DNA of 64,000 nucleotides from Hexactinellida sp. DTS-2022 (lineage: Eukaryota > Porifera > Hexactinellida). The DNA is taken from positions 4,527,501-4,591,500 of the forward strand of contig JAPNXP010000013.1 in assembly GCA_028753945.1 (NCBI GenBank), given 5' to 3'. Below are positions 2,187 to 45,046 of this stretch, piece after piece. The position numbers and the translations under genes were made by a program. Below the pieces are notes generated by a model, which was not told the origin of the DNA, did no database searches, and saw only the letters and a list, made by a program, of their open reading frames with translations. How positions within the stretch are numbered: the stretch's first letter is position 1; every line of letters starts with the position of its first letter.

Positions 2187-2592
2187 TTTGTTTCTATCTG
2201 CTAAAATGGTCACACTTAGATCCCATAGAAAATACACCTGACTAGTCTAATATTTATGATGTAATCGTTATTATTCGGTAAATAGTAGTTTCGAGTAAAG
2301 CAAATGAAGTGTAATTGTTGACACGTTCAAATAAGGTATTGAAAATGAAACTGAAAGTTTCCAAATTCGATTTCCTCTTCACTCAGCTGTTTCTGAGCCT
2401 ATCTACTTGTTTTGCTAAAAACAGCAAATACAAAAGCTGATCTAATAGCATTGTAATTGGTAGCTTGGTGTATTTCTCAAAACTATTCCCTTCAATGCTT
2501 TTAGCAGCATTGCAATCACTCCATATATTCACAGTAGATAGGGATAATTATTAATTATTAGACTAGTATTCAGTTGTTCTATTTCTTCAATA

Positions 2593-26341: not shown

Positions 26342-29300
26342 ATGGCTAATATATCTGAGTGGGACCCCTTTCTCTCTTACTGGGGAAGTTATTGTAAATA
26401 TTCTACGTTACCCGGAGAAGATCAAGAAGAGTTAGCGTATTCAGAAGGTTTGCTGAGCACTCTCTGCTACGAAACAGATGTGGGTTGTATTCCTAGAGGT
26501 ATTAAGCTGGACTCGCGAGGGATCAGACCTAAGTTTGGTGATAGAGAGAATTGGAATAAACAGATAGAAGGTTGTTATTGGTGTGTAGATGACGGCACGA
26601 GTTGGAGAGGAATATGTTGCTCTAAAGTGTGTCTCTTCTATTTACACGATTGGTGTGTTGAGAGAATTGAATATTTCACGAAAAAAAGGTTCTGCAGACT
26701 TCCTGGTTGCGGCGAGAGTATAAATAGAGAACATTTGTACTGTGATGCAAATCACAAAGCTGAATTTTTACTGGCATTCCCTCAGTGGGTTGATCATAGG
26801 AGTATCGTAAAGAATGTTATTAGTACAGGCCCTACTTGGTATTGTAAAACACTTCCAATTGCTACATTAGATCGTAAGGCTGGTAATCCTAATTTTTCAA
26901 AAAAAAGTCAAATTCAACAGAAAACAAATTCTCCTCTCCCTAGACATAAGCCAGACAGAAAACATACTTCTGAATCTGATCCTTTTTCAATGGATTTCCC
27001 AAATGCACTTCTTAGCAAGATGATTTTCAAAACCGACATAGGACCCATTCCGAGACAGGACATAACCGAACAGCACTTAAGTTCCCCTTTCTCTAGCTCT
27101 CCTAACTGGTTAAGGGAAATAGCTGGTTGCGTTCGTTGTGGTAACAAATCTATAACAGAAAGTGGAGATGGTAACTTCTGTACATTCCGTTGCTACCTGT
27201 TATTCTACGAGTGGGCCAGGAGCCTGGTGGAGTCTCTCACTGGCGCTAGGCTCTGTCGGGACACAGGCTGTGATAAGCCGGCGGGTGAGGGGTTTGGGTG
27301 TTGTAGCAGGGAGCATGCTAAAGCTCTGGAGGTTAAGTATAGTCAAGTTAAATATGGTGATTTTGAAAAATTGACTGTATTATGTCCTTATTGGTATAAA
27401 AAGTGTGATTTCCCAAATGATATTGCAAAAACAAAATTATTCGCCAAATCATCCAAACAGATACGTTTACCACCTGCCCCCCTTAATATTTCTGGGACAG
27501 CCCCAGTGAATTTGTTATCTCATTCTCTCCCAATTCCATCTGGAGTGCCCTCACGGGATATTTATAAAACTGACGCTCCCATGGAGAGTACGGAACAAAT
27601 TCAGCTTAAAGCTCCTTTCAAAGCAAATACAAATGATAATTTTATTATTGAGGAAAGTACGACTCTACCAGAACCTGAAATATCACAGGATGTAAATAAC
27701 TCTGGCATTATTGAAAATCTATTTCTCGCTAACACTCCAAAACCAAAACACGAAATGGATACAAATAATCCAGTTTATTCTAATTATAATAATCCATTTA
27801 GTCCATCTAATTTGGGTATTACACCAGCTGTAGCCAAATACCAACTGCCAGCTGATTATAAATGCCCTTTCGACATAGCACAAACAGATAACATTGAAAC
27901 TGAATATGGAAATGAATCATTTTCAAACAAATTTGCTCGTGTTGAATTTGAGAATACTAATCAAACTAATATCAACTCTCCTAATCAAAGTCCACTTATA
28001 CATCCTCTTGGTGCTACAACCACTAGAATTAGCAAACCTTTTGTTCAAAGTGACGATGTTCCAGATTTGCATATATCGGGACAGAAGACTAGTGAAAAGG
28101 AATCGATGGACACACAAGCGAGTAGTGATAACACAGGAACAGCCAATCATGCCATGCAAGTTGAAGCACCATCATCTAAATTATCGGAAACACACGATCC
28201 AATTACGATTCCCAAAAAAGGATCGCGATCCGGATCGAAAGATTCTTATGCCAATTACCAACTGCCAGCTGATTATAAATCTCCCTTCGAAATACCACAA
28301 ACAGATAACATGGATACGGAACTTGGAATTACTTCGCCCCAATTCCCATCACATTCAACAAAGTTAACAACTCCTATTGATGCTCGAGCTACACCAGCTA
28401 CAGCAGCTCACAGCAGTATTAACACAGCACCTAGTCTCAGACTACAGAAGAGCCAATCTCTAATGGAACCAGCCCACTCAGCCCTGCCGGACATATATCC
28501 CTTCTCTCTCTCCGCTCAGCTGACCGGCGCGCTGTCCCGACACACCGACGTGGGAGCTATTCCCCGCCCCCGCGCCCCCCGCGAGCCCTCCCTCCCGGGC
28601 AACTGGGCGACGGCCATAGCGGGCTGCCACTGGTGCCGCCTGAGCAACGCCAGCTTCCACGAGCTGACCTGTGGCCGCAGGTGCTGGCTGCTCTTCCACG
28701 AGTGGTGCGTCCGGAAGATAGAGAGCAGCTGTGGAGCCAGACTGTGCGCGCTGCCCGGGTGCGAGAATTCGCGAGCTGGCGGCTGTGCGTGCTGTAGTCT
28801 AGAGCACATCAGAGATTTGGCCGAACTGAGAGGGTGCGCTCATCTTGGTACGGAGGATGAGGTGGAACTTGTTTTGGGGCCGAGTTGGTACTCAGATCTG
28901 TCAGCTATCCACTTCTCTCGGACGGGCGCATTCTATGAGTTCTCCAATTACTTTCCTTCTCTGTTGCTTCTAGAAGGTTCCATCTGGCCCACGGTGTACC
29001 ACTATCTGTGCGCGCGGGCGCTGGTGGGGACTCCCTATAGCAACCACATATCGCGCATGGAATGTGTTAAGGAGCTGGAGATGTGGATGAAGCGACGCAC
29101 GTGTGCGAAGTGGGCGCGAGCCGACTGCAGCGGAGCGCGGGCGGGAGACACGCGCCGCGCGCTGCTCGCTAAGTTCCAGCAGAACAGCGTTCTGCGGGGC
29201 CTGCTGCTGCGCACCGGAAGACGGCCGCTGGTCTGCCGGGACAGCTCGCTGGGGGATCTGTTGGTGCGGGTGAGAGAGAGACTCGAGACGCAGAGGTTCC

Positions 29301-29521
29301 CACAGACGGCTCAGCCCGAGGCCCACATTAACTCTGTTTGTAGATCTGTCTATAACCCGGGAATTGTCTCGAATATTTCTCTCACACCTTCACGAGATAG
29401 AGTTACAGAGTCTCTACCAACTCTAGAATCGGAGAAATCGATTCAAATCCCTAAAGATAAGTGTATTCAACCTGTTGTTGCCACAAGTTCTGATTCTGAT
29501 TCTGATTCTGACTCTGATTAA
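26342..29521 (+). CDS. Array gene 1: three Cys-rich modules plus a degraded NADAR-like domain
   Basis: 1059 residues, one exon. Cys-rich modules lie at about 43-165, 230-352 and 733-848, each with TDxGxIPR, GCxWC, a CC/C pair, EW(C/A), CxxxGC, CC...H and a closing WY. A 370-residue polar linker separates modules 2 and 3 and contains a block (YQLPADYKCPFDIAQTDN) repeated inside the same linker and again in the tail of gene 2. The last module runs into a NADAR-like region (about 856-985: FYEFSNYFPS ...). It lacks the Glu of the EHYFQ motif (here VYHYLCA) and the whole WGDGG...GxNxLG loop, so catalysis is unlikely. The third module and NADAR stretch (28480-29310) are far richer in GC than the rest. 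The tail ends in (SD)n. Likely zinc-binding; function unknown. Confidence 0.85.
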   Translation: MANISEWDPFLSYWGSYCKYSTLPGEDQEELAYSEGLLSTLCYETDVGCIPRGIKLDSRGIRPKFGDRENWNKQIEGCYWCVDDGTSWRGICCSKVCLFYLHDWCVERIEYFTKKRFCRLPGCGESINREHLYCDANHKAEFLLAFPQWVDHRSIVKNVISTGPTWYCKTLPIATLDRKAGNPNFSKKSQIQQKTNSPLPRHKPDRKHTSESDPFSMDFPNALLSKMIFKTDIGPIPRQDITEQHLSSPFSSSPNWLREIAGCVRCGNKSITESGDGNFCTFRCYLLFYEWARSLVESLTGARLCRDTGCDKPAGEGFGCCSREHAKALEVKYSQVKYGDFEKLTVLCPYWYKKCDFPNDIAKTKLFAKSSKQIRLPPAPLNISGTAPVNLLSHSLPIPSGVPSRDIYKTDAPMESTEQIQLKAPFKANTNDNFIIEESTTLPEPEISQDVNNSGIIENLFLANTPKPKHEMDTNNPVYSNYNNPFSPSNLGITPAVAKYQLPADYKCPFDIAQTDNIETEYGNESFSNKFARVEFENTNQTNINSPNQSPLIHPLGATTTRISKPFVQSDDVPDLHISGQKTSEKESMDTQASSDNTGTANHAMQVEAPSSKLSETHDPITIPKKGSRSGSKDSYANYQLPADYKSPFEIPQTDNMDTELGITSPQFPSHSTKLTTPIDARATPATAAHSSINTAPSLRLQKSQSLMEPAHSALPDIYPFSLSAQLTGALSRHTDVGAIPRPRAPREPSLPGNWATAIAGCHWCRLSNASFHELTCGRRCWLLFHEWCVRKIESSCGARLCALPGCENSRAGGCACCSLEHIRDLAELRGCAHLGTEDEVELVLGPSWYSDLSAIHFSRTGAFYEFSNYFPSLLLLEGSIWPTVYHYLCARALVGTPYSNHISRMECVKELEMWMKRRTCAKWARADCSGARAGDTRRALLAKFQQNSVLRGLLLRTGRRPLVCRDSSLGDLLVRVRERLETQRFPQTAQPEAHINSVCRSVYNPGIVSNISLTPSRDRVTESLPTLESEKSIQIPKDKCIQPVVATSSDSDSDSDSD

Positions 29522-29875: not shown

Positions 29876-32656
29876 ATGGCTGATTGGGGCCCATTTCTGT
29901 CCTACTGGGGTACCTACTGTAAGGATGCATTAATGGGTAGCGATACAAGAATCGCGTTCTCAGAGGCTCTGCTGCGCACTCTCTACTACGAAACAGATGT
30001 GGGCTCAATTCCTCGCGGCATTAAGGTGGACCCTCGAGGGATGGGACCCAAGTTTGGTGATTTTGAGAATTGGAGTAAGCAAATACAAGGTTGTTATTGG
30101 TGCATGGATGATAACACTGATTGGAATGGTGTTTGTTGTGGAAGAGAATGTCTCTATTTCTTGCACGAGTGGTGTATCGAGAGAGCTCTGCACTTCACTA
30201 CAGATAGGATTTGCAGACTCCCTGGGTGTGACAAGATTGCTTATAAAGCTAACAGTATATACTGCGGTGAAGAACATCGGGCTAAATTTGATTGTGCATT
30301 TCCTAAATGGACAGATAGTAAGAGCACTGGTTTAAAAACTATAATTCGTGCAGGCCCTACTTGGTATCGACAGGATTCTAGCAAAAACTGTACAACTTCA
30401 AGTGAAAGTAGCTCACCGATTCCGTCTAAGCATAGTTATAATCTTAGAAGTGGATCAGCAAACAATTCTTTTCAGTCACAATCAACCGAGGTTAAATCCG
30501 GGGGTAACTTCCCATTGGAATTCCGTAATATTTTGATTCATAATACGGATATTGGCATTATTCCCCGTAAATTCCCTACTGGAGAAGATCTCGCTTCTAA
30601 ATATTCCCAAAGTCCAAATTGGTCAGCTGAGATTAAAGGGTGCCACTATTGTGGAAGACCAGAAATGAAAAATCCAATTAATGACATTTTTTGCCGTCTA
30701 CGTTGTTATTTGCTATTCTATGAGTGGTGCCGCACAAAAGTAGAATCTATGGCCAACGTAAGATTCTGTCAATACCCAGAATGTCCTCGGAAAGCATCAG
30801 TTAGATTCCAGTGTTGCAACAAAGAACATGCTATCAAGATTAAGGAGCTTTACTCAGAAAATAAAATTAACAACATTGAGCAAATTATAAGTGTAGCACC
30901 TAAATGGTATACAAAGTCTGACACCCCACATGAACTGGTTCCTCTAATTTCTCATTCACAAACTAATAATAATTATAACCCACATCTAACTCCTATTCAG
31001 CAGAGCCCTACGATTAATTATGTACTCTGTCCGGAAATGACCTTGCTTCTCTATTACAATACAGATATTGGTCCAATACCTAGAGAAATCCGCATGTATT
31101 TAGATAAACTCCCGAGAGAACCACCTTCCCAAAATTGGTGCGTACAAATCAGCATGTGCTATTGGTGTGGCCTGAAACCTCCTTCAATCCATCGTATGGC
31201 TTGTTCTAACAAGTGTTTGTTTCTCTTCATTGAATGGTTGCATATGAAATATGAAATGATCACGACGAAGAAATTTTGCAAGTACGTAGGCTGTACCGCT
31301 CATCGTTCTTTCGGTTTCCAGTGCTGTAACCGAGAGCACTCGATTGTTTATGAATCTTCTTTCAAAGAATATTTTCCATTGCTAAGACATACGGAATTCG
31401 CCTTGGGGCCCATGTGGTACAATGACTTTGCACGTAAGAGGATTGAGTTTTATAATAGAGAAGACCCATTTTATGAATTAACTAATTTCTTTCCCTGTGA
31501 TAGTCTCTCTCTTAACAAAGTACAGTGGAAAACGACTGAACATTATTTCCAAGCAATGAAGTTTTATGGCACTCCATATTTTTATTACGTCAGCACTCTG
31601 TCGTCCCCAAGAGATGCTTTTTCATTTTCGCGGAAACCTGAAGCTATGAAATGGATCCACCCCTGCTGGCATAACGTAAAACAAAAGGTGATGTTAAACG
31701 CGCTAAGAGCAAAGTTTTCGAACAACTTCTTTGCTCGTATACTTTTGAGAACTGGTGATGCTACTTTAATCGAGCACACTAAGAACGATAAATTCTGGGG
31801 AGATGGTGGTGACGGAAGCGGTGAGAACAAGTTAGGTATCTTGTTAATGCGTGTGAGATCCGAACTCCGATTCACAGATATTCAGAATCCTCAGCCCAAA
31901 CCTATTCCCATACAGCCTAGCATCCAGCAACAATGTAATTTCAATGCACTTCGCCAGGAAGTTAATAAACAAATTCAATCAACAGCTCCTCACGAAGGAA
32001 ATACTAACAGTACATTTAAGTTAGAGAAAATTACATTTTTCCCAGAAAAACCTAAACTACCACAGAAAGATAAGGCCACAGCTGATAATATTGCCAAACA
32101 ATCTGAAAATAATCCAGGCTTTATCGCAAATCTAGTTAATATTAATAATACTTCAAAACCAAACAACGATTCGAATACAAATAATCCAGTTTATTCTAGT
32201 TCGTATAATCCATTTAGTCCATCTAATTTGGGTATTACATCTGGTGTAGCCAAATACCAACTGCCAGCTGATTATAAATGTCCTTTCGACATAGCACAAA
32301 CAGATAACATGGATACTGAATATGGAAATGAAACATTTTCAAACAAATTTGCTCGTATTGATTTTGAGAATGATCAAACTAAGTATATCAACTCTCCTAA
32401 TCAAAGTTCAATTATACATCCTCTTGGTGCAACCACTATATCTAGCAAACCTTTTGTGCAAAGTGACGATGTTAAAGATTTGCATATATCGGAAAAGAAG
32501 ACTAGTGAAAAGGAATCGATGGACACACAAGCGAGCAGTGATAACACAGGAACAGACAATCATGCCATGCAAGTTGAAGGACCATCATCTAAATTATCTG
32601 ATAAACATTTCTCTGGACCGAGCTCTGCTATTCCTATTAGTAATTCATTTAAATAA
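29876..32656 (+). CDS. Array gene 2: three Cys-rich modules plus NADAR domain
   Basis: 926 residues, one exon. Modules lie at about 39-160, 224-343 and 396-513; the NADAR domain at 520-665. NADAR hallmarks are intact: FYNREDPFYELTNFFPC, TTEHYFQAMKF, a long helix before LLRTGDATLIEHT, then FWGDGGDGSGENKLGILLMR. Known NADAR enzymes cleave N-glycosidic bonds: YbiA/COG3236 acts on riboflavin intermediates, others remove ADP-ribose from guanine in DNA. This one could act on either kind of substrate; the modules, with 9-11 Cys/His each, probably bind zinc. The 260-residue tail is Asn/Ser-rich, and its last part is nearly the linker of gene 1. The start resembles gene 1 (MADWGPFLSYWG against MANISEWDPFLSYWG). 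Confidence 0.9.
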   Translation: MADWGPFLSYWGTYCKDALMGSDTRIAFSEALLRTLYYETDVGSIPRGIKVDPRGMGPKFGDFENWSKQIQGCYWCMDDNTDWNGVCCGRECLYFLHEWCIERALHFTTDRICRLPGCDKIAYKANSIYCGEEHRAKFDCAFPKWTDSKSTGLKTIIRAGPTWYRQDSSKNCTTSSESSSPIPSKHSYNLRSGSANNSFQSQSTEVKSGGNFPLEFRNILIHNTDIGIIPRKFPTGEDLASKYSQSPNWSAEIKGCHYCGRPEMKNPINDIFCRLRCYLLFYEWCRTKVESMANVRFCQYPECPRKASVRFQCCNKEHAIKIKELYSENKINNIEQIISVAPKWYTKSDTPHELVPLISHSQTNNNYNPHLTPIQQSPTINYVLCPEMTLLLYYNTDIGPIPREIRMYLDKLPREPPSQNWCVQISMCYWCGLKPPSIHRMACSNKCLFLFIEWLHMKYEMITTKKFCKYVGCTAHRSFGFQCCNREHSIVYESSFKEYFPLLRHTEFALGPMWYNDFARKRIEFYNREDPFYELTNFFPCDSLSLNKVQWKTTEHYFQAMKFYGTPYFYYVSTLSSPRDAFSFSRKPEAMKWIHPCWHNVKQKVMLNALRAKFSNNFFARILLRTGDATLIEHTKNDKFWGDGGDGSGENKLGILLMRVRSELRFTDIQNPQPKPIPIQPSIQQQCNFNALRQEVNKQIQSTAPHEGNTNSTFKLEKITFFPEKPKLPQKDKATADNIAKQSENNPGFIANLVNINNTSKPNNDSNTNNPVYSSSYNPFSPSNLGITSGVAKYQLPADYKCPFDIAQTDNMDTEYGNETFSNKFARIDFENDQTKYINSPNQSSIIHPLGATTISSKPFVQSDDVKDLHISEKKTSEKESMDTQASSDNTGTDNHAMQVEGPSSKLSDKHFSGPSSAIPISNSFK

Positions 32657-33087: not shown

Positions 33088-35373
33088 ATGGCATCTAAAT
33101 CCCAAATTTTTACGGATAATTGGAAAAAGTTGATTAAACGTGATAAAAATAATTTCTTTGAGTTTTCTGGAACACTATTACAATCACTATGTTACAAAAC
33201 TGATGTTGGTCCAATTCCTCGCGGCATAGAAATTGCATTTCCACCTCCAGAATACGCTGACAACTCGAATTGGGTTAAAAAAATCGTTGGTTGTTACTGG
33301 TGTGGTATTAGTAATAAGAACAGTCAGCCTATATGTTGTTCAAGGTCATGTCTGTATCTTCTTTACGAATGGTGCATTGAAAGACTGGAAGTTATCACCG
33401 GTCAGAGGTTATGCAAGTTACCTGGTTGCAATAATTCTGTAAAATCACATACTGTTTATGTTTGTTGCAGCCCTAAACATAAGAGTGAATACAATAAATT
33501 GTTTCAAGAATTTCCCAAATCTAAAATCAAAGAAATACAGAATTTCCCTAAGTGGTATAATCGGGATTTGAATGCTAAGATGCCCAAACAACAACCAAAT
33601 CTACATAGTAGTACAATGAAGAATTCCATTCAGCCAAAACCATCTCCGTTACCTAACATGGATTTACCACCTAAGATTAAGGAACATTTGATATACGATA
33701 CTGACGTCGGGCCTATCCCTCGCTCATCTAAAATTGAAGAACATCTTAGGTCACGATTTTCTAGCTCACCAAACTGGCTCTATGAAATCTCCGGGTGTTA
33801 TCAGTGTCTTAATGTTGTTAAAGAAAAGAGAGAATTCCTATGCTCCAGGTTTTGTTACATAATATTTAACGAATGGTGTAGACGAAAAGTATCAGATTGT
33901 ATTAATGAAGAATATTGTAAATATCCTGGGTGTGGGAAGAAGGCAATTGGCAACATGTTTTGTGGTAAGGATCATAAACGTGAAATAAAGAAGAAATTTC
34001 CTTATTTGATTTCTCCAGATTGTTTGTCAAAAGTCGATAAAGGGCCTAATTGGTACACACGGGAGAATCCTCAATTTCCTTCTAAACAATGTAAAATAGA
34101 ATCTTCTTCCCGCAAGCCTAATGTTTTACAAATTCTTAGGAAAGAATCAGTGTTTTCATGTATGTTAACTAAGTTCCTATTTGAGAAATGTGATGTTGGT
34201 CCTATCCCAAGAAAACTATTTGAACTGATTCCAGATATGTATTCTCATGGCGGATTAAAGAATGGTAACTTTAATGCGATTATTCCCGGCTGTTATTGGT
34301 GTTGTGAGAGCGACCAATCGATTCGCGGCATAGCTTGCTCCAATGTTTGTTTCTTTCTATTTAACGAATGGTGCCATAAAAAATACCAACTGTTTAATTC
34401 TAAACAATTATGCAAATTTCCTCAATGTGAAATTACAGTTAGTTTTGGTAAGGATTGTTGTAAAAAAGAACACAGCGATAAATACAATGACACTTTCGTT
34501 ACGAAGTATTATTCACAATTAAAAAGTACAAATTATGCTTTAGGCCCTAAATGGTATTTGGATACAACCTCAAATCACATAGATTTCTATAACAGAGAAG
34601 ATCCATTCTATGAATTTACGAATTTCATTGTTTGCCCGATTCTAATTATTGACAATAACAGCTGGCCCACTACTGAACACTACTTTCAAGCTCAAAAGTT
34701 TGTAGGGACGCCGCACTGTGAATTTATTCGCAGGCTCAGTGCTCCAAGGGAAGCATTCGAGTATTCTCGGCGTCATAATGTTCAAATGTGGATTCGCTCC
34801 GATTGGGGTAGAGTAAAGGAATTTGTCATGTTAAAAGCGCTAGAAGAAAAGTTCAACCAAAACAAACATTTCAAAGACTTGTTAATCCGTACCGGAGACA
34901 AAAAGCTTTACGAACACACGAATATCGACCGATTCTGGGGAGATGGTGGCGATAGGAAGGGACAGAACAAGTTAGGCATGTTACTAATGCAGGTAAGATT
35001 TGAGCTGCATGGAAGAGAGAGCTTTCTCCCTGGGTTTTTGAGTTATCTAACTCTTGATGGCAGAAATGATCAGACTCAAAGTGATATTAACAAAGGACAA
35101 GATTTAACAGGAAATAATGATAGCAATTATCTGACTGTGTCTGATCAATATCCAACTTCTCCTCATGGTGCCACCCCATACGTTTCTACAATGCAATATT
35201 CTAATAATCTCCAGGTGCAACCGTACAATAACTTCTCACCAACATCTAACCAATTTCAAATGCAATCCCAAATGTGTACAGCTAGAAATAATAATCCTTT
35301 TGTTGAACAGTTTCAACCCCACTGTTTCAAGCCAGAAGCCTTTGAACCCTCCAATCCGTTTGCTAAAATGTAA
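33088..35373 (+). CDS. Array gene 3: three Cys-rich modules plus NADAR domain
   Basis: 761 residues, one exon, low GC throughout. Modules at about 38-155, 205-320 and 368-488; NADAR at 497-640 with FYNREDPFYEFTNF, TTEHYFQAQKF, LLIRTGDKKLYEHT and FWGDGGDRKGQNKLGMLLMQ, all expected active-site elements. The second module has GCYQC instead of GCYWC and CG instead of CC before its His, yet keeps enough ligands for zinc. Linkers are short (about 50 residues), so this is the most compact full-length member. The tail (641-761) is Gln/Asn/Ser-rich and ends with ALEPSNPFAKM-like polar sequence. No signal peptide or membrane segment, so cytosolic or nuclear. Confidence 0.9.
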   Translation: MASKSQIFTDNWKKLIKRDKNNFFEFSGTLLQSLCYKTDVGPIPRGIEIAFPPPEYADNSNWVKKIVGCYWCGISNKNSQPICCSRSCLYLLYEWCIERLEVITGQRLCKLPGCNNSVKSHTVYVCCSPKHKSEYNKLFQEFPKSKIKEIQNFPKWYNRDLNAKMPKQQPNLHSSTMKNSIQPKPSPLPNMDLPPKIKEHLIYDTDVGPIPRSSKIEEHLRSRFSSSPNWLYEISGCYQCLNVVKEKREFLCSRFCYIIFNEWCRRKVSDCINEEYCKYPGCGKKAIGNMFCGKDHKREIKKKFPYLISPDCLSKVDKGPNWYTRENPQFPSKQCKIESSSRKPNVLQILRKESVFSCMLTKFLFEKCDVGPIPRKLFELIPDMYSHGGLKNGNFNAIIPGCYWCCESDQSIRGIACSNVCFFLFNEWCHKKYQLFNSKQLCKFPQCEITVSFGKDCCKKEHSDKYNDTFVTKYYSQLKSTNYALGPKWYLDTTSNHIDFYNREDPFYEFTNFIVCPILIIDNNSWPTTEHYFQAQKFVGTPHCEFIRRLSAPREAFEYSRRHNVQMWIRSDWGRVKEFVMLKALEEKFNQNKHFKDLLIRTGDKKLYEHTNIDRFWGDGGDRKGQNKLGMLLMQVRFELHGRESFLPGFLSYLTLDGRNDQTQSDINKGQDLTGNNDSNYLTVSDQYPTSPHGATPYVSTMQYSNNLQVQPYNNFSPTSNQFQMQSQMCTARNNNPFVEQFQPHCFKPEAFEPSNPFAKM

Positions 35374-35852: not shown

Positions 35853-38498
35853 ATGGCATCGAGTAATTTTTCCTTTGTGGCTCGCTGGATAAGATGGGTC
35901 AGAGATCAGGCAGGTTATACCACAAAGAGACACGAGATAGACTTTTCAGAAGGACTGCTTGAAACTCTCTATTATGAGACGGATATAGGCTCTATACCTA
36001 GAGGAGCTGAGACAGATATTCCTCCCAAATACAAGAATAATCCTAACTGGAATAAGCGTATCTCAGGCTGTTATTGGTGTATGAGAGATAGAACACATGT
36101 TCAAGGAATTTGTTGTTCCAAGATTTGCATTTACTATCTGCATGAGTGGTGTGTTGAGAGAATGCAGTTATTCCAGAAAAGGAGATTCTGTAGGCGACCT
36201 GGCTGTGAGAAGTCTCCCGCTCAAGATCATATTTGCTGTAGTAGAACTCATCACAGTCAGTATACTGAATTGTACACATGGGTTGGTGAAGCACAACTTA
36301 ATATGTTGGTATCAAAAGGCCCTGCCTGGTATAACAATGAACTAAGCTTTAACTCTGACACCCAAATAGTACAGAGTAACCCTTTCATCTCTACATCTTC
36401 TACTAGTGACTCTGCAACAATGGATTTAGCGACAGAGCTCAAAGCCGCTCTCATATTCTACACAGACGTGGGGCCTGTTCCCAGGGCCTATAAGAAGACG
36501 GAGCATTCTGTCTCTCAGCTCTCCGACTGCATTAACTGGAGAGCTGACGTCACAGGCTGCTATCTGTGCGGAGGACACGTTACACAGAGATGCGAATATC
36601 TCTGTTCTGAGAAATGCTATTTTGTATTCAATGAGTGGTGTAGGTTAAAGGTTGTTGATGCCAATAAGACGGAATTCTGTGAATACCCTGGCTGTGGTAA
36701 AAAGCCTCAAGCAGGGGGGTACCCTACCTGTAGCAAAGAGCATTTTGAGAAGAGAAATAATTTTCTCGCCAGTAACGAGGGTTATAGGTTATTAAAACAA
36801 GGTCCTCATTGGTATAAAAGTACTACACAAAGTAATTCAATTGGTGCTGTGAATACAACTACACATCAAAATCAAACAAACTCGCATCATGATAGCCCAG
36901 TTAACCCATCCGACCCATTTAACATTAAATTTCTGTTTTCTCGCACCCTAACAGAGTGGATGTATAAAGAGAGCGATATCGGCCCGATTCCAAGGTCCCT
37001 CCTACAGATTCCTTACATCGGAGATAAGAACAAACCAACAAATTCCAACTGGAATACAATGTTACCATCATGCTACTGGTGCTGTGGGGGTAGCACACTG
37101 TCTGTACATAGTATAGCGTGCTGCGAAGAGTGCTTCTTCCTATTCAATGAGTGGTGCCATAAGCAGTACAATATAGCTACTTTCAAGCAGATCTGCAAAT
37201 ATCTACATTGTGAAAGCCCGCTTAGCTCAAAGAGAGATTGTTGTTACGAGCACACAAGTAGCTACTCGTCTTTGAAGCAAAAGTTTGTGCATCTGTTGAA
37301 TAGCAGTGACTTCGCTCTTGGACCCAAATGGTATTCTAACAAATCCGTTAAACACATCGACTTCTACAACAGAGAGGATCCGTTCTACGAATTCACAAAC
37401 TTCTTTCCCTGCACCAAACTCACAATAGACCGAAAGGTGTGGAAAACCGCAGAGCATTATTTCCAGGCTCAGAAGTTTATCGGCTCTCCTCATATGGAGT
37501 GTGTACGTATGATGAATACCCCGCGTGACACCTTCCAATACACGCGACGAGCCTCTGTCCAGAGGTGGATCAGGCCCGACTGGACTGCGGTTAAGGAGGC
37601 TGTGATGCTGAGAGCGCTAGAGGCTAAGTTTAGCCAGAACGAGAGCCTAGCCCAGCTGTTGATACGAACTGGAGATATGCGCTTGTACGAGCACACCAGG
37701 AACGATGCATTCTGGGGAGACGGGGGAGATAGAAAGGGGCAGAACAAGCTGGGACAGCTGCTCGCGCAGGTGAGGTTCGATCTACAGAGCAAGTGTCCCT
37801 TCCTGCCCTCTAAACTGGAGCACATCCAGTTAAGCACTTATCAGTCAGTATCGCCTGTTATGCATGTGTCAAATAGCGCAGGTACCAATCTCAGTTCTTG
37901 TGCCACTGGAGATGGGACAGGTTTCCAGAGGGTGAGGCGTCCTGTTGAGGTTCCCCATGGGGCCACACCACGCGGAACTAATGTGGATACTATATCCCAA
38001 ATTCCCCGCAGTCAGAAACACTCTTCAGAAGAGAGTATGTCTAGTTATAACACAGGCAATACTCTATCTTGTAATGGGACTAGTCCCAAGGTTTTGTATA
38101 GCAACTATGATACACAGAACATTCCTACCTCAATTAATACCACTCCATCACATACTAGAGATTATTCATATAATAATGCCACACCTTGCAGCAGCTCACG
38201 CAGCCACAATACCAACACAACTCAGCCCCAACATTATCAATCCAAGATAAGAGAACAACCGCTTCATTCGAACACTGCAAATCCTGGATTTAATGTAAAG
38301 AATAAGATCTCGCAATTTGAGGATAAGAGTCAACATCAACAAAATGATCACGGCAGAAACACTATTCCTTTCAATAATAATTATCCCTCTAGAGAATCGG
38401 GTCCGCATAGCACTAATACAGCCAGTACTTCTTCAGCTAGCGCACCGTCTCTTCATGCCCAACCACACATGACACTCAAACATTATACTAAAGACTAA
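35853..38498 (+). CDS. Array gene 4: three Cys-rich modules plus NADAR domain
   Basis: 881 residues, one exon. Modules at about 43-157, 204-318 and 375-491; NADAR at 503-645 with FYNREDPFYEFTNFFPC, TAEHYFQAQKF, LLIRTGDMRLYEHT and FWGDGGDRKGQNKLGQLLAQ. The NADAR domain is nearest to that of gene 3. The tail of about 235 residues is Ser/Thr/Asn/His-rich and probably disordered. Base composition changes along the gene: the third-module to NADAR part from about 37.4 to 37.8 kb is GC-rich, the rest AT-rich, as in genes 1 and 5. Catalytic set complete, so an active glycosidase or ADP-ribosyl-hydrolase is plausible. Substrate unknown. Confidence 0.9.
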   Translation: MASSNFSFVARWIRWVRDQAGYTTKRHEIDFSEGLLETLYYETDIGSIPRGAETDIPPKYKNNPNWNKRISGCYWCMRDRTHVQGICCSKICIYYLHEWCVERMQLFQKRRFCRRPGCEKSPAQDHICCSRTHHSQYTELYTWVGEAQLNMLVSKGPAWYNNELSFNSDTQIVQSNPFISTSSTSDSATMDLATELKAALIFYTDVGPVPRAYKKTEHSVSQLSDCINWRADVTGCYLCGGHVTQRCEYLCSEKCYFVFNEWCRLKVVDANKTEFCEYPGCGKKPQAGGYPTCSKEHFEKRNNFLASNEGYRLLKQGPHWYKSTTQSNSIGAVNTTTHQNQTNSHHDSPVNPSDPFNIKFLFSRTLTEWMYKESDIGPIPRSLLQIPYIGDKNKPTNSNWNTMLPSCYWCCGGSTLSVHSIACCEECFFLFNEWCHKQYNIATFKQICKYLHCESPLSSKRDCCYEHTSSYSSLKQKFVHLLNSSDFALGPKWYSNKSVKHIDFYNREDPFYEFTNFFPCTKLTIDRKVWKTAEHYFQAQKFIGSPHMECVRMMNTPRDTFQYTRRASVQRWIRPDWTAVKEAVMLRALEAKFSQNESLAQLLIRTGDMRLYEHTRNDAFWGDGGDRKGQNKLGQLLAQVRFDLQSKCPFLPSKLEHIQLSTYQSVSPVMHVSNSAGTNLSSCATGDGTGFQRVRRPVEVPHGATPRGTNVDTISQIPRSQKHSSEESMSSYNTGNTLSCNGTSPKVLYSNYDTQNIPTSINTTPSHTRDYSYNNATPCSSSRSHNTNTTQPQHYQSKIREQPLHSNTANPGFNVKNKISQFEDKSQHQQNDHGRNTIPFNNNYPSRESGPHSTNTASTSSASAPSLHAQPHMTLKHYTKD

Positions 38499-39150: not shown

Positions 39151-41538
39151 ATGGCTACTAATATTATTATTCGTCCAAAATTCCAAACTTACTGGAAAAC
39201 ACAGTTTGAAGTTGAATTCGAAACTCCATTCTCAGAGCGACTCCTCACCCTGCTCTACTTCAACACAGATGTAGGTCTGATCCCTAGGGGAAAGCTAGCA
39301 GTAAGTCCTGCATCTTCTTTCTGTACATCTTTCAATTGGAAAAAGCCTATACAAGGTTGTTATTGGTGCTCTGGTGATAATATGTCCCATCAAGCTATAT
39401 GTTGCTCCTCTAATTGTCTTATTCTATTCCATGAATGGTGTGTTCATAAGGTCAATAAAACCGGTAAATTTTCTATATGTAAGTACCCTGGGTGTGAGAA
39501 CGACAAACTTGACAAGGACCTAGAATGCTGTGAGGAACATGTTAAAATATATTCCACTCAATTTGGAATTATTCCATCCAACAACAATCAAGACTCACCC
39601 AATTGGTATTTTATTGATAACAAAGTCAAGCACCCGAATAATTCAAATTCAATGGAAGATGAAATGACTGATTTAGGCCAAGGGAGTATAAGTGACGCAT
39701 TCCCTGGCTCAGATTGCAGCTTGTTTATATTCTCTACGAGACTGTACTCGGGGCTTATCTACAGAAGTGACGTGGGTCCCATTCCCAGAGACAGCTTCCG
39801 AGAGGAACAGCTGACTTCTGAGTTCGCTAACTCTCCCAATTGGAGAGCAGCGATAGAAGGCTGTTACTGGTGTGGGAAGCCCACCAGAGCCAACCAGTAC
39901 ACGTATGTGTGCGATAAGAAGTGCTACTCCTTGCTGCACGAGTGGTGTCGCAGGAAGCTATACGAGTTCTGCGGGGACTCTCTCTGCATGTATCCGTCCT
40001 GCGAGGCGCCAGCTGTGGAGACTGCCAACTGCTGTTCCGAGGCCCATCAGCAGAAACTGGAGGCTAACTACAGATCCATTAAAAAAGGTAAAGATACTAA
40101 TCTGGGCAAAGGTCCTTATTGGTATCAAAAGAAGGAACTTCGCACTAATAAAATCACTCAATTCTTTCTACGAAATTCCCCAACCGAACAACCTCAAGAA
40201 CAACAACAACAACAACAGCTACCATTTATCCTAGACGCGACTTTAACCGAGCATTTGATGATGTTTACCGACATTGGTCCTATCCCTAGAGAGCTCCTTT
40301 CAGATCCAAATGCCATTCAGTTGTCACAACAATCTCTCCAAACCGCTTCCAACTGGAACACTAAGATAGTGGGCTGCTACTGGTGTTGTACGCCACTTAA
40401 CACAAACAGCTATGTCAGTATATTCTGCAACAAACAGTGCTTCTATCTATTCAATGAATGGTGTTTTAAGAAATTGAAAGAAAGAGATTCTACAATTAAC
40501 TCCTGCAAGTATATAAAATGCTCTAACCCCTCGATTGACTCATATCAGTGCTGCAGAGACCATGGACGCGAGTATATGGCTGAGTTCGGAGAGTTCTCTC
40601 ATCTCTTGCAGACAACACGTTACTGCCTTGGTCCGAGTTGGTATAATAACAGTACAACACTACATACAGTTGAATTCTACAATAGAGATCAACCGTTCTA
40701 CGAATTTACAAACTTCTTCGCTTGTAACTCACTTCGCATTGATGGCACCAGTTATCCCACGTCAGAGCATTATTTCCAGTCTCAGAAGTTTGTCGGCACT
40801 CCCTACATGCCGCACATAGCCGCCATGAGTCAGCCGAGAGAGTCGTTTGACTTCAGTCGCTCCAGCAGAGGCACCCGCTGGACACGGCCGGATTGGGGGG
40901 AGGTCAAGGAGCGCGTGATGTACCGGGCCCTGAGAGAGAAGTTCTCGCAGGCTCCCGAGTTGGGCTACCTCTTGGTGTCCACCTGCGGAGCTCATATATG
41001 CGAGCACACCGGAAGCGACGGCTACTGGGGAGACGCGGGAGACGGGACCGGCAAGAACAGACTCGGGGTGCTCCTAATGAAGCTCAGGGACGAGCTGAAG
41101 TCTGGGTGTACTTATTTCCCTGACACACTCTCGCACTTCACTTATGAGGAGCTACGCGCTCAGTTTGTAGCGAGTCAATCCTCTCCTTTGATGCCTCCAG
41201 TTCTGTCACGTTCCGACTCCCTACCTCATATGAACTTAAACCTGCTGTCTATTAAGAGTGGCATTAACAGCAATAATAGCTTTAAGCAGATGCGTAGCTC
41301 AGACAATGGATGGATATCCGATGAGGATAATGCGAGCGCGGCGGAGCATGTCTCTTCTAACTCCACTCACGGTGTGTTTGTAAAGCAACCAACTTTTGGT
41401 AACAGCTCCAAACAAACCTCAGAGGGAGCTCCGAGACCGCCTCCCTTCAATCCCCACTTTAGCGGCTCTGCAGTTCCCGGGGGAGAGGGACCTAAGGGCA
41501 GAAACCTGGCAGACAATCCTGAGTGCATGGAAACGTAA
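39151..41538 (+). CDS. Array gene 5: three Cys-rich modules plus NADAR domain
   Basis: 795 residues from ATG 39151 (an upstream TTG opens the frame). Modules at about 39-150, 205-321 and 374-495; NADAR at 508-650 with FYNRDQPFYEFTNFFAC, TSEHYFQSQKF and YWGDAGDGTGKNRLGVLLMK. Two motif changes are visible: STCGAHICEHT for the usual RTGxxxLxEHT, and WGDAG for WGDGG, but the key acidic residues remain. A short glutamine run (about 350-356) precedes module 3. The block 39703-40034 is almost identical to part of gene 6. The first module is close to that of gene 7. Gene 5 is thus the hub from which genes 6 and 7 share parts. Confidence 0.88.
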   Translation: MATNIIIRPKFQTYWKTQFEVEFETPFSERLLTLLYFNTDVGLIPRGKLAVSPASSFCTSFNWKKPIQGCYWCSGDNMSHQAICCSSNCLILFHEWCVHKVNKTGKFSICKYPGCENDKLDKDLECCEEHVKIYSTQFGIIPSNNNQDSPNWYFIDNKVKHPNNSNSMEDEMTDLGQGSISDAFPGSDCSLFIFSTRLYSGLIYRSDVGPIPRDSFREEQLTSEFANSPNWRAAIEGCYWCGKPTRANQYTYVCDKKCYSLLHEWCRRKLYEFCGDSLCMYPSCEAPAVETANCCSEAHQQKLEANYRSIKKGKDTNLGKGPYWYQKKELRTNKITQFFLRNSPTEQPQEQQQQQQLPFILDATLTEHLMMFTDIGPIPRELLSDPNAIQLSQQSLQTASNWNTKIVGCYWCCTPLNTNSYVSIFCNKQCFYLFNEWCFKKLKERDSTINSCKYIKCSNPSIDSYQCCRDHGREYMAEFGEFSHLLQTTRYCLGPSWYNNSTTLHTVEFYNRDQPFYEFTNFFACNSLRIDGTSYPTSEHYFQSQKFVGTPYMPHIAAMSQPRESFDFSRSSRGTRWTRPDWGEVKERVMYRALREKFSQAPELGYLLVSTCGAHICEHTGSDGYWGDAGDGTGKNRLGVLLMKLRDELKSGCTYFPDTLSHFTYEELRAQFVASQSSPLMPPVLSRSDSLPHMNLNLLSIKSGINSNNSFKQMRSSDNGWISDEDNASAAEHVSSNSTHGVFVKQPTFGNSSKQTSEGAPRPPPFNPHFSGSAVPGGEGPKGRNLADNPECMET
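39703..40034 (+). repeat. 332-bp block shared with array gene 6
   Basis: Aligning by eye with 42611-42942 I count three mismatches and no gap. It covers most of module 2. Sequence outside the block is much more different, so the edges are sharp. Confidence 0.9.
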
Positions 41539-41902
41539 ACTTGTTCCGTAAAATAAGCTAATAATAAGATTTTTATAGAAACATTGATATATAATGCTTT
41601 TGTTAATTAATTAAATTTGTGTTAATCCTTCAGTATAGTTAATACTACATAAGATGAGTTTGTATGTTTATTGATTGAGTATTTGTAATAGACTTGTATG
41701 TATAATGGGTATGTATTTTCAATTGCTATTTACTATTAATTTATGCATTTCAGTTTCTGTATTTGTTACGAAAAGGTCTAACTGTAATTTCACAGCTGTT
41801 ATATTTTAATTATGTCGAACTATTTTTAGGGAACTATTAAATAAACGATCTTATAGTTTCCTAGTATTTGATACGATCGATTCAGTTTGTGTATTACCCC
41901 AG
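41539..41902. other. Spacer between array genes 5 and 6
   Basis: About 360 bp, AT-rich. It ends in TTACCCCAG immediately before the gene 6 ATG, an acceptor-like word. Confidence 0.5.
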
Positions 41903-43291
41903 ATGGCAGGCCAACAGGTATTCAGCTCTAACTCTGTTGAGGACTTGGAGACAGTGGCAGCTAAAGTTAGAACAAAGATAGAGACTTATTTCTCCCAGCT
42001 GCTGGGGGTTATCAGGAAGAGACAAACCGAACTCATCTCAGAGCTAAACGAGATTCTGTCTCGCTACAGACTGGAGAGAGTGAGACTGATGGATAAAGTT
42101 AAAGAGTTGGAAGAAATAAAGAAGTATCATGAAGAGAGGAGCTCCAGAGATCGATTAAATGATACAATAAATAATATTAAAAGTGATTTATCAGACGCGC
42201 TTAAAGCGAGCACAAACACGATTAGTATTAAATTTGAATGGGATTCAGTGTATGCGAGTCAAGTTTGCAAAATTGGTAAACTAACTCTGATAACTAAAAA
42301 CAGATTAATTGCTAAGGATGTTGCACCTGCAACTACAAGTATAACGAATAGTGAAGTCACACTTCATGATGTAACTCCTGCTAATGACCCCAATCCACCT
42401 TTCTTTGATTCAATTGATTCTGAGCTGTGCTCCTATGCGACTCCCTACTCACCAGCAGATCCTATTTCCAGATCTAAATACTCAGATTCTAAACAGAGAG
42501 TATGCTCTCCTATCTCTAGACATTCTTCCGAAACAGCTACAGATACTTCAACCAAAAGGAATGACAAGATAATTGAAACTAACAAAGAGACAACTATTGA
42601 CGTCATAATGCCTGGCTCAGCTTGCAGCTTGTTTATTTTCTCTACGAGACTGTACTCGGGGCTTATCTACAGAAGTGACGTGGGTCCCATTCCCAGAGAC
42701 AGCTTCCGAGAGGAACAGCTGACTTCTGAGTTCGCTAACTCTCCCAATTGGAGAGCAGCGATAGAAGGCTGTTACTGGTGTGGGAAGCCTACCAGAGCCA
42801 ACCAGTACACGTATGTGTGCGATAAGAAGTGCTACTCCTTGCTGCACGAGTGGTGTCGCAGGAAGCTATACGAGTTCTGCGGGGACTCTCTCTGCATGTA
42901 TCCGTCCTGCGAGGCGCCAGCTGTGGAGACTGCCAACTGCTGCTCTGACAAACATCTCTACAGACTAGAATATAATTTCAAAACTATTTATAATTACAGC
43001 ATTAGTACAGCGGTAATTAGAAATCCACACTGGTACAGTATACACGATAAAGTTAACTGCTCCACCCATAAACTAAAACGCTCATTCCCTGCTAAGAGCA
43101 GCCCAGATAATCCAAAGCTGTTCCATAAGAAAGTATGTGAATCTAACACCAGCAATACAACTAGTTCATATCACGAGACATTAATTGCTAATCACATTCA
43201 TAAACGAGAGGTTGAGAAGTCCAAACTTCCTCCACCTTTTAATCCAGATTTCATGAAACGTAATTATAGTAAGAGTGGACATCATAAATGA
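41903..43291 (+). CDS. Array gene 6: coiled coil plus one Cys-rich module, no NADAR
   Basis: 462 residues, one exon. Residues 10-95 form a coiled coil (VRTKIETYFSQLLGVIRKRQ ... ELEEIKKYHEERSS), followed by IKFEWDSVYASQVCKIGKL. A polar middle leads to a single module (about 257-375) that is nearly identical to module 2 of gene 5. The tail (to 462) is Lys/Ser-rich. The coiled coil and the segment after it match gene 7 and resemble the coiled coil of the NHL pseudogene at 58.6 kb. Lacking NADAR, it could act as a regulator or competitor of full-length members, for instance by pairing through the coil; this is inference. Confidence 0.85.
   Translation: MAGQQVFSSNSVEDLETVAAKVRTKIETYFSQLLGVIRKRQTELISELNEILSRYRLERVRLMDKVKELEEIKKYHEERSSRDRLNDTINNIKSDLSDALKASTNTISIKFEWDSVYASQVCKIGKLTLITKNRLIAKDVAPATTSITNSEVTLHDVTPANDPNPPFFDSIDSELCSYATPYSPADPISRSKYSDSKQRVCSPISRHSSETATDTSTKRNDKIIETNKETTIDVIMPGSACSLFIFSTRLYSGLIYRSDVGPIPRDSFREEQLTSEFANSPNWRAAIEGCYWCGKPTRANQYTYVCDKKCYSLLHEWCRRKLYEFCGDSLCMYPSCEAPAVETANCCSDKHLYRLEYNFKTIYNYSISTAVIRNPHWYSIHDKVNCSTHKLKRSFPAKSSPDNPKLFHKKVCESNTSNTTSSYHETLIANHIHKREVEKSKLPPPFNPDFMKRNYSKSGHHK
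42611..42942 (+). repeat. 332-bp block shared with array gene 5
   Basis: Partner of 39703-40034 (three mismatches counted). It implies very recent duplication or gene conversion. Confidence 0.9.
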
Positions 43292-43951: not shown

Positions 43952-45046
43952 ATGGCTACTAATAGTCTCCCGTCATTCCAAACTTACTGGAAAACTAAGT
44001 TTGAAGTTGAATTCGAAACTCCCTTCTCAGAGCGACTTCTCAGCATACTCTACTTCAACACAGATGTAGGCATGATCCCTAGGGGAAAGCTATCAGTTTG
44101 TCCTGCATCTTGTTTCTGTGATTTATCAAATTGGAAAAAGCCTATACAAGGTTGTTATTGGTGCTCTGTTGACAACACATCCCATCAAGCTATATGTTGC
44201 TCATCTGACTGTCTCTACCAGTTCCATGAATGGTGTATTCAGAAGGTCAATAAGAGCACTAAATTTGCCCTGTGTATACTCCCAGGTTGTGAAGAAGAAC
44301 TGGAGCGTGGTAGCAATTTCATAGCCTGCTGTGGGGAACATTTCAGGGTTTATTCTGCTGAGTATGGAATGATCTTATCGTCTAGTGGAACACAGCCGCA
44401 TTGGTATCGTGATGCGTTAGAACAACAGCCAATTAAACCTATTCTAGACAGTGCTACAATTACAAAATACGATGAGTTAGGATTGAGTACAGAAAGTAGC
44501 ACTGACGGCTTTTCAATTGAAGAAGATTTCGAGACAACAGCAACCAAAGTTAGAACAAAAATAGAGACTTATTTCTCCCAGCTGCTGGAGACTATCAGAA
44601 ACAGACAAACTCAACTCATCTCAGAATTAAACGATATTCTGTCTCGCTACAGACAGGAGAGAATAAGTCTGAAGAATAAAGTTAAAGAATTGGAAGATAA
44701 GGAGAAGCACTTTACAGATAGCAGTAGCACTTATTCTCCTATAAACTCTAACTCAAGTAGCGATACGGAGATATTAGCCAAATTGAAAAAACAAACAGAT
44801 CTTGAGAATATGAGAATTGAGTTTGAATGGACTCGGAAGTATGCTAGGGAAGCCAGCAAAATCGGGAGTTTAAAACTAACTTCAGTTTTGGACACATTTA
44901 AACATATTACTCCGATAGGATCCGAAACCGCGAGTTTTCACGATAAAGATGAATCAGATTTTACGTCCAACCCAAAGAGAAACAAGCTTTCTAACTGCAA
45001 TACAGCCTTTATTTCGCCTCTTAGAGGCAAAGCATTTGAACTCTAA
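43952..45046 (+). CDS. Array gene 7: one Cys-rich module plus coiled coil, no NADAR
   Basis: 364 residues, one exon. The single module (about 37-149) is close to module 1 of gene 5, including the leader FQTYWKTKFEVEFETPFSER. Residues 190-290 form a coiled coil (VRTKIETYFSQLLETIRNRQ ...) then IEFEWTRKYAREASKIGSL, both shared with gene 6. So gene 7 looks like the front of gene 5 joined to the coil, while gene 6 is the coil joined to the middle of gene 5. The upstream 30 bases (TACAAGTCAATAATGGCTAC) match those of gene 5. It ends the array; the next gene is unrelated. Confidence 0.85.
   Translation: MATNSLPSFQTYWKTKFEVEFETPFSERLLSILYFNTDVGMIPRGKLSVCPASCFCDLSNWKKPIQGCYWCSVDNTSHQAICCSSDCLYQFHEWCIQKVNKSTKFALCILPGCEEELERGSNFIACCGEHFRVYSAEYGMILSSSGTQPHWYRDALEQQPIKPILDSATITKYDELGLSTESSTDGFSIEEDFETTATKVRTKIETYFSQLLETIRNRQTQLISELNDILSRYRQERISLKNKVKELEDKEKHFTDSSSTYSPINSNSSSDTEILAKLKKQTDLENMRIEFEWTRKYAREASKIGSLKLTSVLDTFKHITPIGSETASFHDKDESDFTSNPKRNKLSNCNTAFISPLRGKAFEL

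What the first reader, a model, noticed from the sequence alone, without database searches (positions are those of the whole stretch)
26342..45046. Tandem array of seven intronless genes combining a new-looking Cys-rich module with NADAR domains
Five genes share the order module 1 - module 2 - module 3 - NADAR; two more carry single modules. The module (TDxGxIPR, GCYWC, CC...C, EWC, CxxPGC, CC...H, GPxWY) has the residues of a zinc-binding fold, and I cannot match it to a named family. Position-specific features are visible: module 1 tends to have TDVGxIPRG and CCS, and module 3 runs straight into FYNREDPFYE. So the gene was built by triplication first and then copied whole. Known NADAR enzymes reverse guanine ADP-ribosylation or cleave riboflavin intermediates. 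An expanded, clustered, fast-recombining family suggests an arms race, for example against ADP-ribosylating toxins or invading nucleic acid. That role is inference.
Basis: partly seen in the sequence, partly recalled or inferred. Interest (0 to 1): 0.92.

Follow-up and report, generated by a model that had tools for sequence, protein, structure and literature searches.

The report
Glass-sponge triple-zinc-module NADAR gene array
In a probable glass-sponge genome, a row of seven intronless genes joins copies of an undescribed zinc-type module to an enzyme that probably strips ADP-ribose from guanine, and several such genes appear to have a dead twin that shares the same front half.

Summary
Seven intronless + strand genes lie at 26342-45046; five read module-module-module-NADAR and two carry one module plus a coiled coil. 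The module matches no Pfam family and no PDB sequence. AlphaFold models it confidently (pLDDT 91); none of the 21 PDB chains Foldseek ranked matched. Eight Cys/His positions are kept in 125 of 134 copies. Named full-architecture relatives are all Oopsacas minuta, so the host is probably a glass sponge. Demosponge NADARs carry a related half-module.

But the array is old (gene-by-gene orthologues in another genome) and module dN/dS is 0.13-0.34, so 'fast arms race' is not shown.

New here:
(1) g2-g5 keep the NADAR catalytic residues; g1 is a pseudo-NADAR, a type seen in 12 of 44 array NADARs.
(2) In 5 of 12 pseudo genes, modules 1-2 are 76-95% identical to an active gene of the same contig or genome, while the C-halves are 25-39% alike (AU p 0.0001 on a subset).
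(3) Tails of active proteins are rich in NPF motifs (26 seen, about 2 expected).

Best reading: a reader-plus-eraser of guanine ADP-ribosylation with catalytically dead partners. No biochemistry is shown.

The parts
26342..29521 (+). g1: module1-module2-long linker-module3-pseudo-NADAR, 1059 aa
   Evidence: NADAR under Pfam cut-off; catalytic residues lost
29876..32656 (+). g2: module1-2-3-NADAR, 926 aa
33088..35373 (+). g3: module1-2-3-NADAR, 761 aa
35853..38498 (+). g4: module1-2-3-NADAR, 881 aa
39151..41538 (+). g5: module1-2-3-NADAR, 795 aa
41903..43291 (+). g6: coiled coil + one module of g5 module-2 type, 462 aa
43952..45046 (+). g7: one module of g5 module-1 type + coiled coil, 364 aa
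26474..26842 (+). g1 module 1 (from TDxG to WY, as for all modules listed)
27032..27397 (+). g1 module 2
28544..28891 (+). g1 module 3 (pseudo-type module-3 clade)
28931..29236 (+). g1 pseudo-NADAR (catalytic Glu, Lys and the D-x-x-W-G-D-G stretch lost)
29993..30367 (+). g2 module 1
30545..30910 (+). g2 module 2
31061..31420 (+). g2 module 3
31448..31870 (+). g2 NADAR, catalytic set intact
33199..33558 (+). g3 module 1
33700..34056 (+). g3 module 2
34189..34557 (+). g3 module 3
34585..35007 (+). g3 NADAR, catalytic set intact
35979..36332 (+). g4 module 1
36462..36815 (+). g4 module 2 (part of the 128-residue piece 36432-36815 that was modelled)
36972..37334 (+). g4 module 3
37362..37784 (+). 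g4 NADAR, catalytic set intact
39265..39609 (+). g5 module 1
39766..40125 (+). g5 module 2
40267..40644 (+). g5 module 3
40675..41100 (+). g5 NADAR, catalytic set intact
42674..43036 (+). g6 module
44060..44407 (+). g7 module
44519..44881 (+). g7 coiled coil (aa 190-310), weakly like the coiled-coil/NHL family
35867..36843 (+). tract 92.3% identical over 977 bp to the pseudo-NADAR gene at C5:4.31 Mb (L010); ends 28 bp after module 2
39703..40040 (+). tract 98.5% identical to 42611-42948 in g6 (also 94.6% like L017 at C5:4.51 Mb over a longer stretch)
42611..42948 (+). g6 copy of that tract
27691..28194 (+). g1 linker 88% identical to the g2 tail at 32104-32607
35293..35361 (+). two NPF motifs at the g3 C-terminus (aa 736 and 756)
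32207..32215 (+). NPF motif in the g2 tail (aa 778); others at g1 aa 484 and g4 aa 176 (linkers)

Best explanation
The array encodes 'reader-eraser' proteins. A second, catalytically dead lineage (g1, and the C5:4.31 Mb gene L010 in this genome) keeps the module scaffold. In several genomes it shares much the same modules 1-2 as an active gene, as if the pair must see the same target (sharing shown; reason inferred): the dead partner would be a competitor, decoy, dimer partner or reader-only regulator. NPF motifs in the tails of active proteins probably tether them to EH-domain proteins or to the DNA polymerase epsilon B subunit POLE2 (inferred). Most likely job: undoing guanine ADP-ribosylation made by the sponge's own ADP-ribosyltransferases or by toxins.
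For: NADAR identity and catalytic set E534/K541/E613/D618/W621 (g4 numbering) in g2-g5, and in 28 of 32 active-type NADARs (residue roles from PMC11543638 section 12). Characterised NADARs remove ADP-ribose from guanine in DNA and RNA. Two riboflavin-pathway families absent; PARP-domain matches abundant. Eight Cys/His in 125 of 134 modules; confident compact model. C-halves of the 7 pseudo genes put on the tree (of 12) form one clade, 100/100, while N-halves pair with active genes; AU p 0.0001 against one clade of the 5 pseudo N-halves of g4 type; pairwise identities. dN/dS 0.13-0.34 in modules. NPF: 26 against 1.99 shuffled, maximum 7 of 1000; 13 of 26 active tails, 0 of 6 pseudo tails. EH domains and a POLE2 with pocket residues Y311, Y513 and E520 kept are present.
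Against: No biochemistry, metal or target is shown. POLE2 S522, needed in human, is Cys here and D284 is Asn. g5-g7 have no NPF, and 13 of 26 active tails have none. The 99 control tails also lie above their own shuffles (5 NPF against 1.12, maximum 5), at a far lower rate. 7 of 12 pseudo genes do not show the same-contig pairing or cannot be judged, g1 among the negatives; for L010 module 2, g4 (88%) barely beats P0034 of another genome (86%). L010, the pseudo partner of g4, has a broken start of its reading frame in this assembly. No DarT-family transferase was found; other transferases were not typed.
Confidence: 0.45

Rival explanations
1. The NADARs act on small molecules: soluble ADP-ribose or NAD-derived immune signals (or damaged metabolites), not on nucleic acid; the modules and tails only place the enzyme in the cell.
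For: [quoted passage not shown] The window NADARs are close to YbiA, 2b3w E 4e-35. NPF tails are classic EH-domain/endocytic ligands (listing and abstracts' openings).
Against: The NADARs tested in PMC11125620 and PMC11833690 acted on guanosine-ADPr DNA or RNA (passages). Three conserved modules are a large apparatus for a metabolite enzyme (inference).
Confidence: 0.25
2. Riboflavin-intermediate N-glycosidase (damage control), as the automatic names in Oopsacas ('PYRR, chloroplastic-like') and NCBIfam TIGR02464 suggest.
For: TIGR02464 scores 108.4 bits on g4, above its 73.7 cut-off; database names.
Against: No GTP cyclohydrolase II (PF00925) and no DHBP synthase (PF00926) match in the 112 Mb genome, so the substrates seem to have no source in the host. 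The family is multi-domain and has dead copies.
Confidence: 0.05
3. The active/pseudo sharing of modules 1-2 comes from repeated fresh fusion of a duplicated active N-half to a pseudo C-half, or from gene-model and haplotype artefacts, not from conversion kept by selection.
For: Only protein models, not DNA, were seen for the other genomes. P0022 has four modules, as if two models were joined. L010 is about 250 kb from g4 and broken.
Against: The pattern recurs on four other contigs with 76-95% identity between partners, which I judge too divergent for haplotypes in most pairs. In this genome the tract ends just after module 2. Repeated fusion would still need a reason for the same pairing each time.
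Confidence: 0.3
4. A decaying or neutral tandem amplification without function.
For: Glass-sponge genomes hold many single-exon genes and tandem clusters of them (PMC10282587 section 6); broken and partial copies exist (L010, L015).
Against: Long intact frames, dN/dS 0.13-0.34 in modules, catalytic residues and orthology kept across genomes, a transcriptome-derived homologue P0032.
Confidence: 0.03

Closest known systems
E. coli YbiA / YbiA-type NADARs (PDB 2b3w)
   Same: Same domain over its length (E 4e-35), Glu-type catalytic site
   Different: 2b3w is a 168-residue lone domain; here three modules precede it and a tail, often with NPF motifs, follows
Demosponge finger-NADAR proteins (Dysidea P0052, Halichondria P0072, Geodia P0083; P0058 read as Ephydatia from its 'Em' gene name)
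   Same: A C-x-x-P-G-C...C-x3-H finger before the NADAR; hhalign 94.3% to the module's second half for a profile of 10 such N-termini; array NADARs form one clade, 99, among the NADAR hits
   Different: Half a module in the ones seen (P0052 also has C-x2-C...C-S-x2-C), no TDxGxIPR front part, no triplication
DarT1-NADAR toxin-antitoxin (BC4488 NADARs, PMC11543638)
   Same: NADAR as guanine-ADPr eraser
   Different: Asp instead of the YbiA Glu in that subfamily; no DarT in this genome; here multi-domain animal proteins
Coiled-coil/NHL proteins of the same genome
   Same: The g7 coiled coil matches them, weakly; g6's matches L017 at 97.6% of DNA
   Different: g6 and g7 have a module and no NHL match; no RING or B-box was reported
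Enzyme/pseudoenzyme pairs and integrated-decoy immune pairs (recalled, no call)
   Same: Active and dead paralogues that share a recognition part
   Different: Here the shared part is alike within a genome while the enzyme halves are divergent; function unproved

Membership tests
NADAR superfamily, YbiA type | Pfam PF08719 above its curated cut-off | tested here: met
   g2-g5 99.6-113.3 bits against 35.1; g1 26.6, not met
NADAR superfamily, YbiA type | Catalytic Glu and Lys, plus Glu-x4-Asp-x2-Trp of the last strand | tested here: met
   g2-g5 yes; g1 no; 12 of 44 array NADARs are of the degenerate type (roles; mapped by spacing and the alignment)
NADAR superfamily, YbiA type | Hydrolysis of guanine-ADP-ribose | not testable with these tools
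   needs protein
DarTG1-type antitoxin NADAR (BC4488) | Asp in place of the YbiA Glu, linked DarT | tested here: not met
   Glu present; no DarT match in the genome
Riboflavin-intermediate N-glycosidase (TIGR02464) | Model score above cut-off | tested here: met
   g4 108.4 against 73.7 bits; g1 35.5, not met; g2, g3 and g5 not scanned
Riboflavin-intermediate N-glycosidase (TIGR02464) | A riboflavin pathway that makes its substrates | tested here: not met
   PF00925 and PF00926: 0 matches each in G000
Known zinc-finger families in Pfam (C1, PHD and others) | Pfam model above cut-off on the modules | tested here: not met
   whole proteins: only NADAR over a cut-off, g6 C1_2 17.2 of 26 bits; 17 modules scanned alone: best C1_2 E 0.00035, in 2 of 17
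[not shown]
Zinc-binding module | Conserved ligand set | tested here: met
   125 of 134 copies have Cys/His at all eight places
Zinc-binding module | Bound metal | not testable with these tools
   needs protein
TRIM-NHL (for g6, g7) | RING, B-box, coiled coil, NHL | tested here: not met
   only weak coiled-coil matches under cut-off are reported

The most novel reading that the evidence does not exclude
Glass sponges run an ADP-ribose immune or repair system built of matched pairs: an active eraser and a dead NADAR that share one recognition part (modules 1-2), kept alike within each species by gene conversion while both diverge between species. The module is a new metal-binding fold that reads the ADP-ribosylated target, and NPF tails carry the active member to the replisome through POLE2 or to EH-domain compartments.
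Probability: 0.25. Interest if true: 0.88.

Novelty: new variant of a known kind. Interest (0 to 1): 0.72.

Why it matters
NADAR enzymes erase guanine ADP-ribosylation, yet their role in animals is called unclear in print (PMC11125620 passages). Here is an animal lineage that has a cluster of them behind a dedicated three-module front end of undescribed fold, has kept a dead sister lineage, and gives hints (NPF tails, shared modules 1-2) of what they bind. That makes the animal role of NADAR directly testable in a small, defined gene set, and offers a possible natural case of concerted evolution between an enzyme and its pseudoenzyme.

Tried and rejected
Rejected. Riboflavin role. DarT partner. 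Viral relatives: one scan of viral contigs with one protein, none. Known zinc families and PDB sequence relatives of the module (the best PDB hits, Pygopus E 0.89, are not significant). Rfam and tRNA: none in the window.

Considered and left open: SAE2/CtIP-like gene just upstream (25106-25780) as functional neighbour; no support beyond adjacency.

Limits. Homologue species are mostly unnamed ENA records; 'same contig' rests on equal contig length in the tables. Pseudo-gene counts use only proteins the searches returned plus g1 and L010. The trees used 21 genes; the pseudo genes P0022, P0026, P0030, P0032, P0033 and the g4-type P0034 were left out, and I had seen the tree before naming the group for the AU test. 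NPF counts used 32 of 43 NADAR-bearing array proteins (tails of 60 aa or less dropped). dN/dS is a simple pairwise Nei-Gojobori estimate. The A3 full-length model was never obtained: 13 busy replies, one job accepted and interrupted. The genome search with g1 never ran, nor with g5, so the whole-genome module census rests on the g4 and g7 queries. The last paper search used whole-word 'adp-ribos', which can hardly match anything, so its zero means little; (0 papers) tested another idea. One search was a script that failed on a file name.

Full report
Observation. The seven genes are there at the stated coordinates and are far longer than chance frames. A script that looked for the TDxGxIPR signature found three copies in each of g1-g5 and one in each of g6 and g7, each running to an x-W-Y end. 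The alignment of the 17 copies has seventeen invariant columns, among them eight Cys/His positions spaced C-x2-C, C-x3-C, C-x4-C, C-x3-H, and a Trp. Over 134 copies from this genome and from the homologues, 125 keep Cys or His at all eight places. In g1-g7 Pfam puts only NADAR over its cut-off, the modules alone give only weak matches, and the PDB sequence search gives nothing significant.

Where it is. The window is C5:4527501-4591500 of a 112.4 Mb genome in 18 contigs. Of the 33 full-length hits the five named ones are Oopsacas minuta, a glass sponge; the others are unnamed records and one transcriptome protein. I infer a glass sponge. Glass-sponge genomes are dense, with many single-exon genes and tandem clusters of them (PMC10282587: section 6 read; passages), so the lack of introns is ordinary there.

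The order of events. On a tree of the 134 modules, the labels 1, 2 and 3 of the 32 three-module proteins together need two changes, the least possible. Labels 1 and 2 each form one side of a branch; label 3 needs two changes, because the module 3 of pseudo genes forms its own group (96) that sits nearer module 2 (82). So triplication came first. Counterparts of g2, g3, g5 and g7 share one contig of another genome (P0003, P0001, P0002 and P0040; contig length 216,403; identities for the first three). The array is therefore older than that split. Module dN/dS is 0.13-0.34 in the pairs measured, with 0.54 for a coiled coil and 0.72 for the g1 linker/g2 tail; none exceeds 1.

The enzyme part. g4's NADAR aligns with E. 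coli YbiA at E 4e-35 and with an NADAR-domain chain, 8bau, at E 9e-13. The residues that PMC11543638 (section 12 read) finds around the ADP-ribose map by spacing to g4 E534, K541, E613, D618 and W621. They are intact in g2-g5 and in 28 of 32 active-type NADARs; the exceptions are P0015, P0021, P0046 and P0047. Twelve of the 44 array NADARs examined are of a degenerate type: g1, L010, P0022-P0028, P0030, P0032 and P0033, three of them (P0026, P0027, P0030) from Oopsacas. In all 12 the first Glu is Tyr, Phe or Gln, the catalytic Glu is lost (Cys in 10), and no W-G-D-G stretch is intact. The Lys is Ala in g1 and Arg in P0027 but is kept in the other 10. The C-halves (module 3 plus NADAR) of the seven pseudo genes put on a tree form one clade with support 100/100, so this is an old, retained lineage rather than scattered decay.

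The active/pseudo pairs. L010, a pseudo-NADAR gene about 250 kb away on the same contig, shares a 977 bp tract of 92.3% identity with g4 that ends 28 bp after module 2. Protein identity is 95% and 88% for modules 1 and 2, but 31% and 25% for module 3 and NADAR. The same is seen on single contigs elsewhere: P0010/P0027 of Oopsacas (94, 95, then 34 and 36), P0009/P0028 (79, 91, then 37 and 39), P0018/P0025 (93, 76, then 34 and 30), and P0020/P0022 (modules 1-3 at 93, 92 and 87, last module 34, NADAR 33; P0022 may be a joined gene model). Between genomes the active orthologues g4 and P0010 show 68, 51, 51 and 72, and the pseudo genes L010 and P0027 show 69, 52, 57 and 51. Forcing the five pseudo N-halves of g4 type into one clade costs 635 log-likelihood units, AU p 0.0001 (I had seen the tree before). 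In a tally of all 12 pseudo genes, 5 (L010, P0022, P0025, P0027, P0028) have their nearest modules 1-2 in an active gene of the same contig or genome; P0024 pairs with P0004 on another contig; g1, P0023, P0026 and P0030 do not fit; P0032 and P0033 cannot be judged. For L010 module 2, g4 (88%) barely beats P0034 of another genome (86%), so that sharing may be older than their split. Gene conversion or repeated refusion can both make this pattern. In either case the two kinds of gene are repeatedly given the same front half.

Other exchange. g5 module 2, g6 and L017 share tracts of 94.6-98.6%. g6's coiled coil is 97.6% like L017's. g7 has g5's module 1 region at 83%. The g1 linker is 88% like the g2 tail. 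The g7 coiled coil also matches 60 places outside the array loci, weakly (E 8e-7 to 8e-4), mostly in intronless frames of about 400 aa; the two scanned, L019 and L021, have NHL repeats after that part, and one such gene lies at 58550-60084 of the window itself.

Tails. Of 43 NADAR-bearing array proteins, 32 have tails over 60 aa (6,074 aa). They hold 26 NPF motifs in 25 different contexts, against a shuffled mean of 1.99 and maximum of 7 in 1000; NPF is the most over-represented tripeptide. 13 of 26 active tails and 0 of 6 pseudo tails have one. For the window's own tails alone it is 3 against 0.31, reached in 10 of 2000 shuffles. 99 tails of other NADAR proteins from the search hold 5 in 17,012 aa; that too is above their shuffled mean of 1.12 and equals the maximum of 500 shuffles, but the rate is about 15 times lower. 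Relatedness inflates such counts, but the varied contexts argue against one inherited motif. NPF binds EH domains and, in human cells, POLE2 (PMC12808100: abstract, section 8 and passages). This genome has 10 EH-domain matches and a POLE2 gene in which human Y311, Y513 and E520 are kept but S522 is Cys and D284 is Asn (positions counted by hand on that alignment). So the POLE2 link is possible, not shown.

Function. The NADARs tested in PMC11125620 (outline and passages) and PMC11833690 (passages) removed ADP-ribose from guanosine. The riboflavin alternative is poor, because two pathway families have no match in the genome. DarT has none either, while PARP catalytic matches are many: 53, exon pieces and several near-identical copies on C6 included. 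I therefore favour reversal of guanine ADP-ribosylation, made by the sponge's own transferases or by foreign ones, with the modules as the targeting part. This rests on family knowledge and anatomy, not on an assay.

Print. My searches of the open library listed no paper on this module or architecture. The listings were capped (20 of 30, 20 of 326, where 'nadar' also matched unrelated words, 5 of 3,493) and the last search was malformed. In the Oopsacas and Aphrocallistes genome papers the word NADAR does not occur in the main text (passages only, plus section 6 of the latter). PMC11125620 states that NADARs occur in Porifera. Subscription papers and supplements were not searched.

Noticed in passing
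L032 and L033 (G000:C8:618500-694000): Frames read in L032 and L033 each hold the end of one NADAR and the start of the next: intron-containing gene(s) for poly-NADAR proteins; no module was found in them.
   Followed up: partly
L024 (G000:C4:5211000-5215500, minus strand 1974-3245): A 424-aa frame with two NADAR domains, which lack some catalytic residues as far as they aligned.
   Followed up: partly
window 58550-60084 and many loci on C17, C6, C13 and C5: Large family of intronless coiled-coil/NHL genes of about 400 aa, clustered on C17, C6 and C13; g7's coiled coil matches it weakly.
   Followed up: partly
L027 minus strand 4236-6266 (C5, about 2 kb upstream of the window): 677-aa frame with a caspase domain (PF00656, E 8e-30) followed by a long C-terminal part with no Pfam match at E 0.01.
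   Followed up: partly
P0123 (708 aa, unnamed ENA contig): TRAF-type zinc finger (over cut-off) and a RING-like finger (under cut-off) fused to a NADAR with intact catalytic residues.
   Followed up: partly
G000:C6:2100295-2147601 and single copies on C3, C4, C12: Nine PARP-domain frames on C6 with identical scores and 207-aa frames, and like copies on other contigs: looks like an amplified or mobile unit.
   Followed up: no
window 25106-25780: 224-aa protein with a SAE2/CtIP C-terminal match (21.0 bits, cut-off 19.8) directly upstream of the array.
   Followed up: no
L028 (G000:C1:16134000-16142000): A lone module-1 frame of g1 type (154 aa), a second module fragment and g1/g2-like pieces nearby: a scattered or decaying copy on another contig.
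   Followed up: partly
g5 tail and P0002, P0021, P0029, P0017: Conserved P-P-[PA]-[FY]-N-P motif in the tail of this lineage, resembling a PPxY ligand (resemblance recalled).
   Followed up: no
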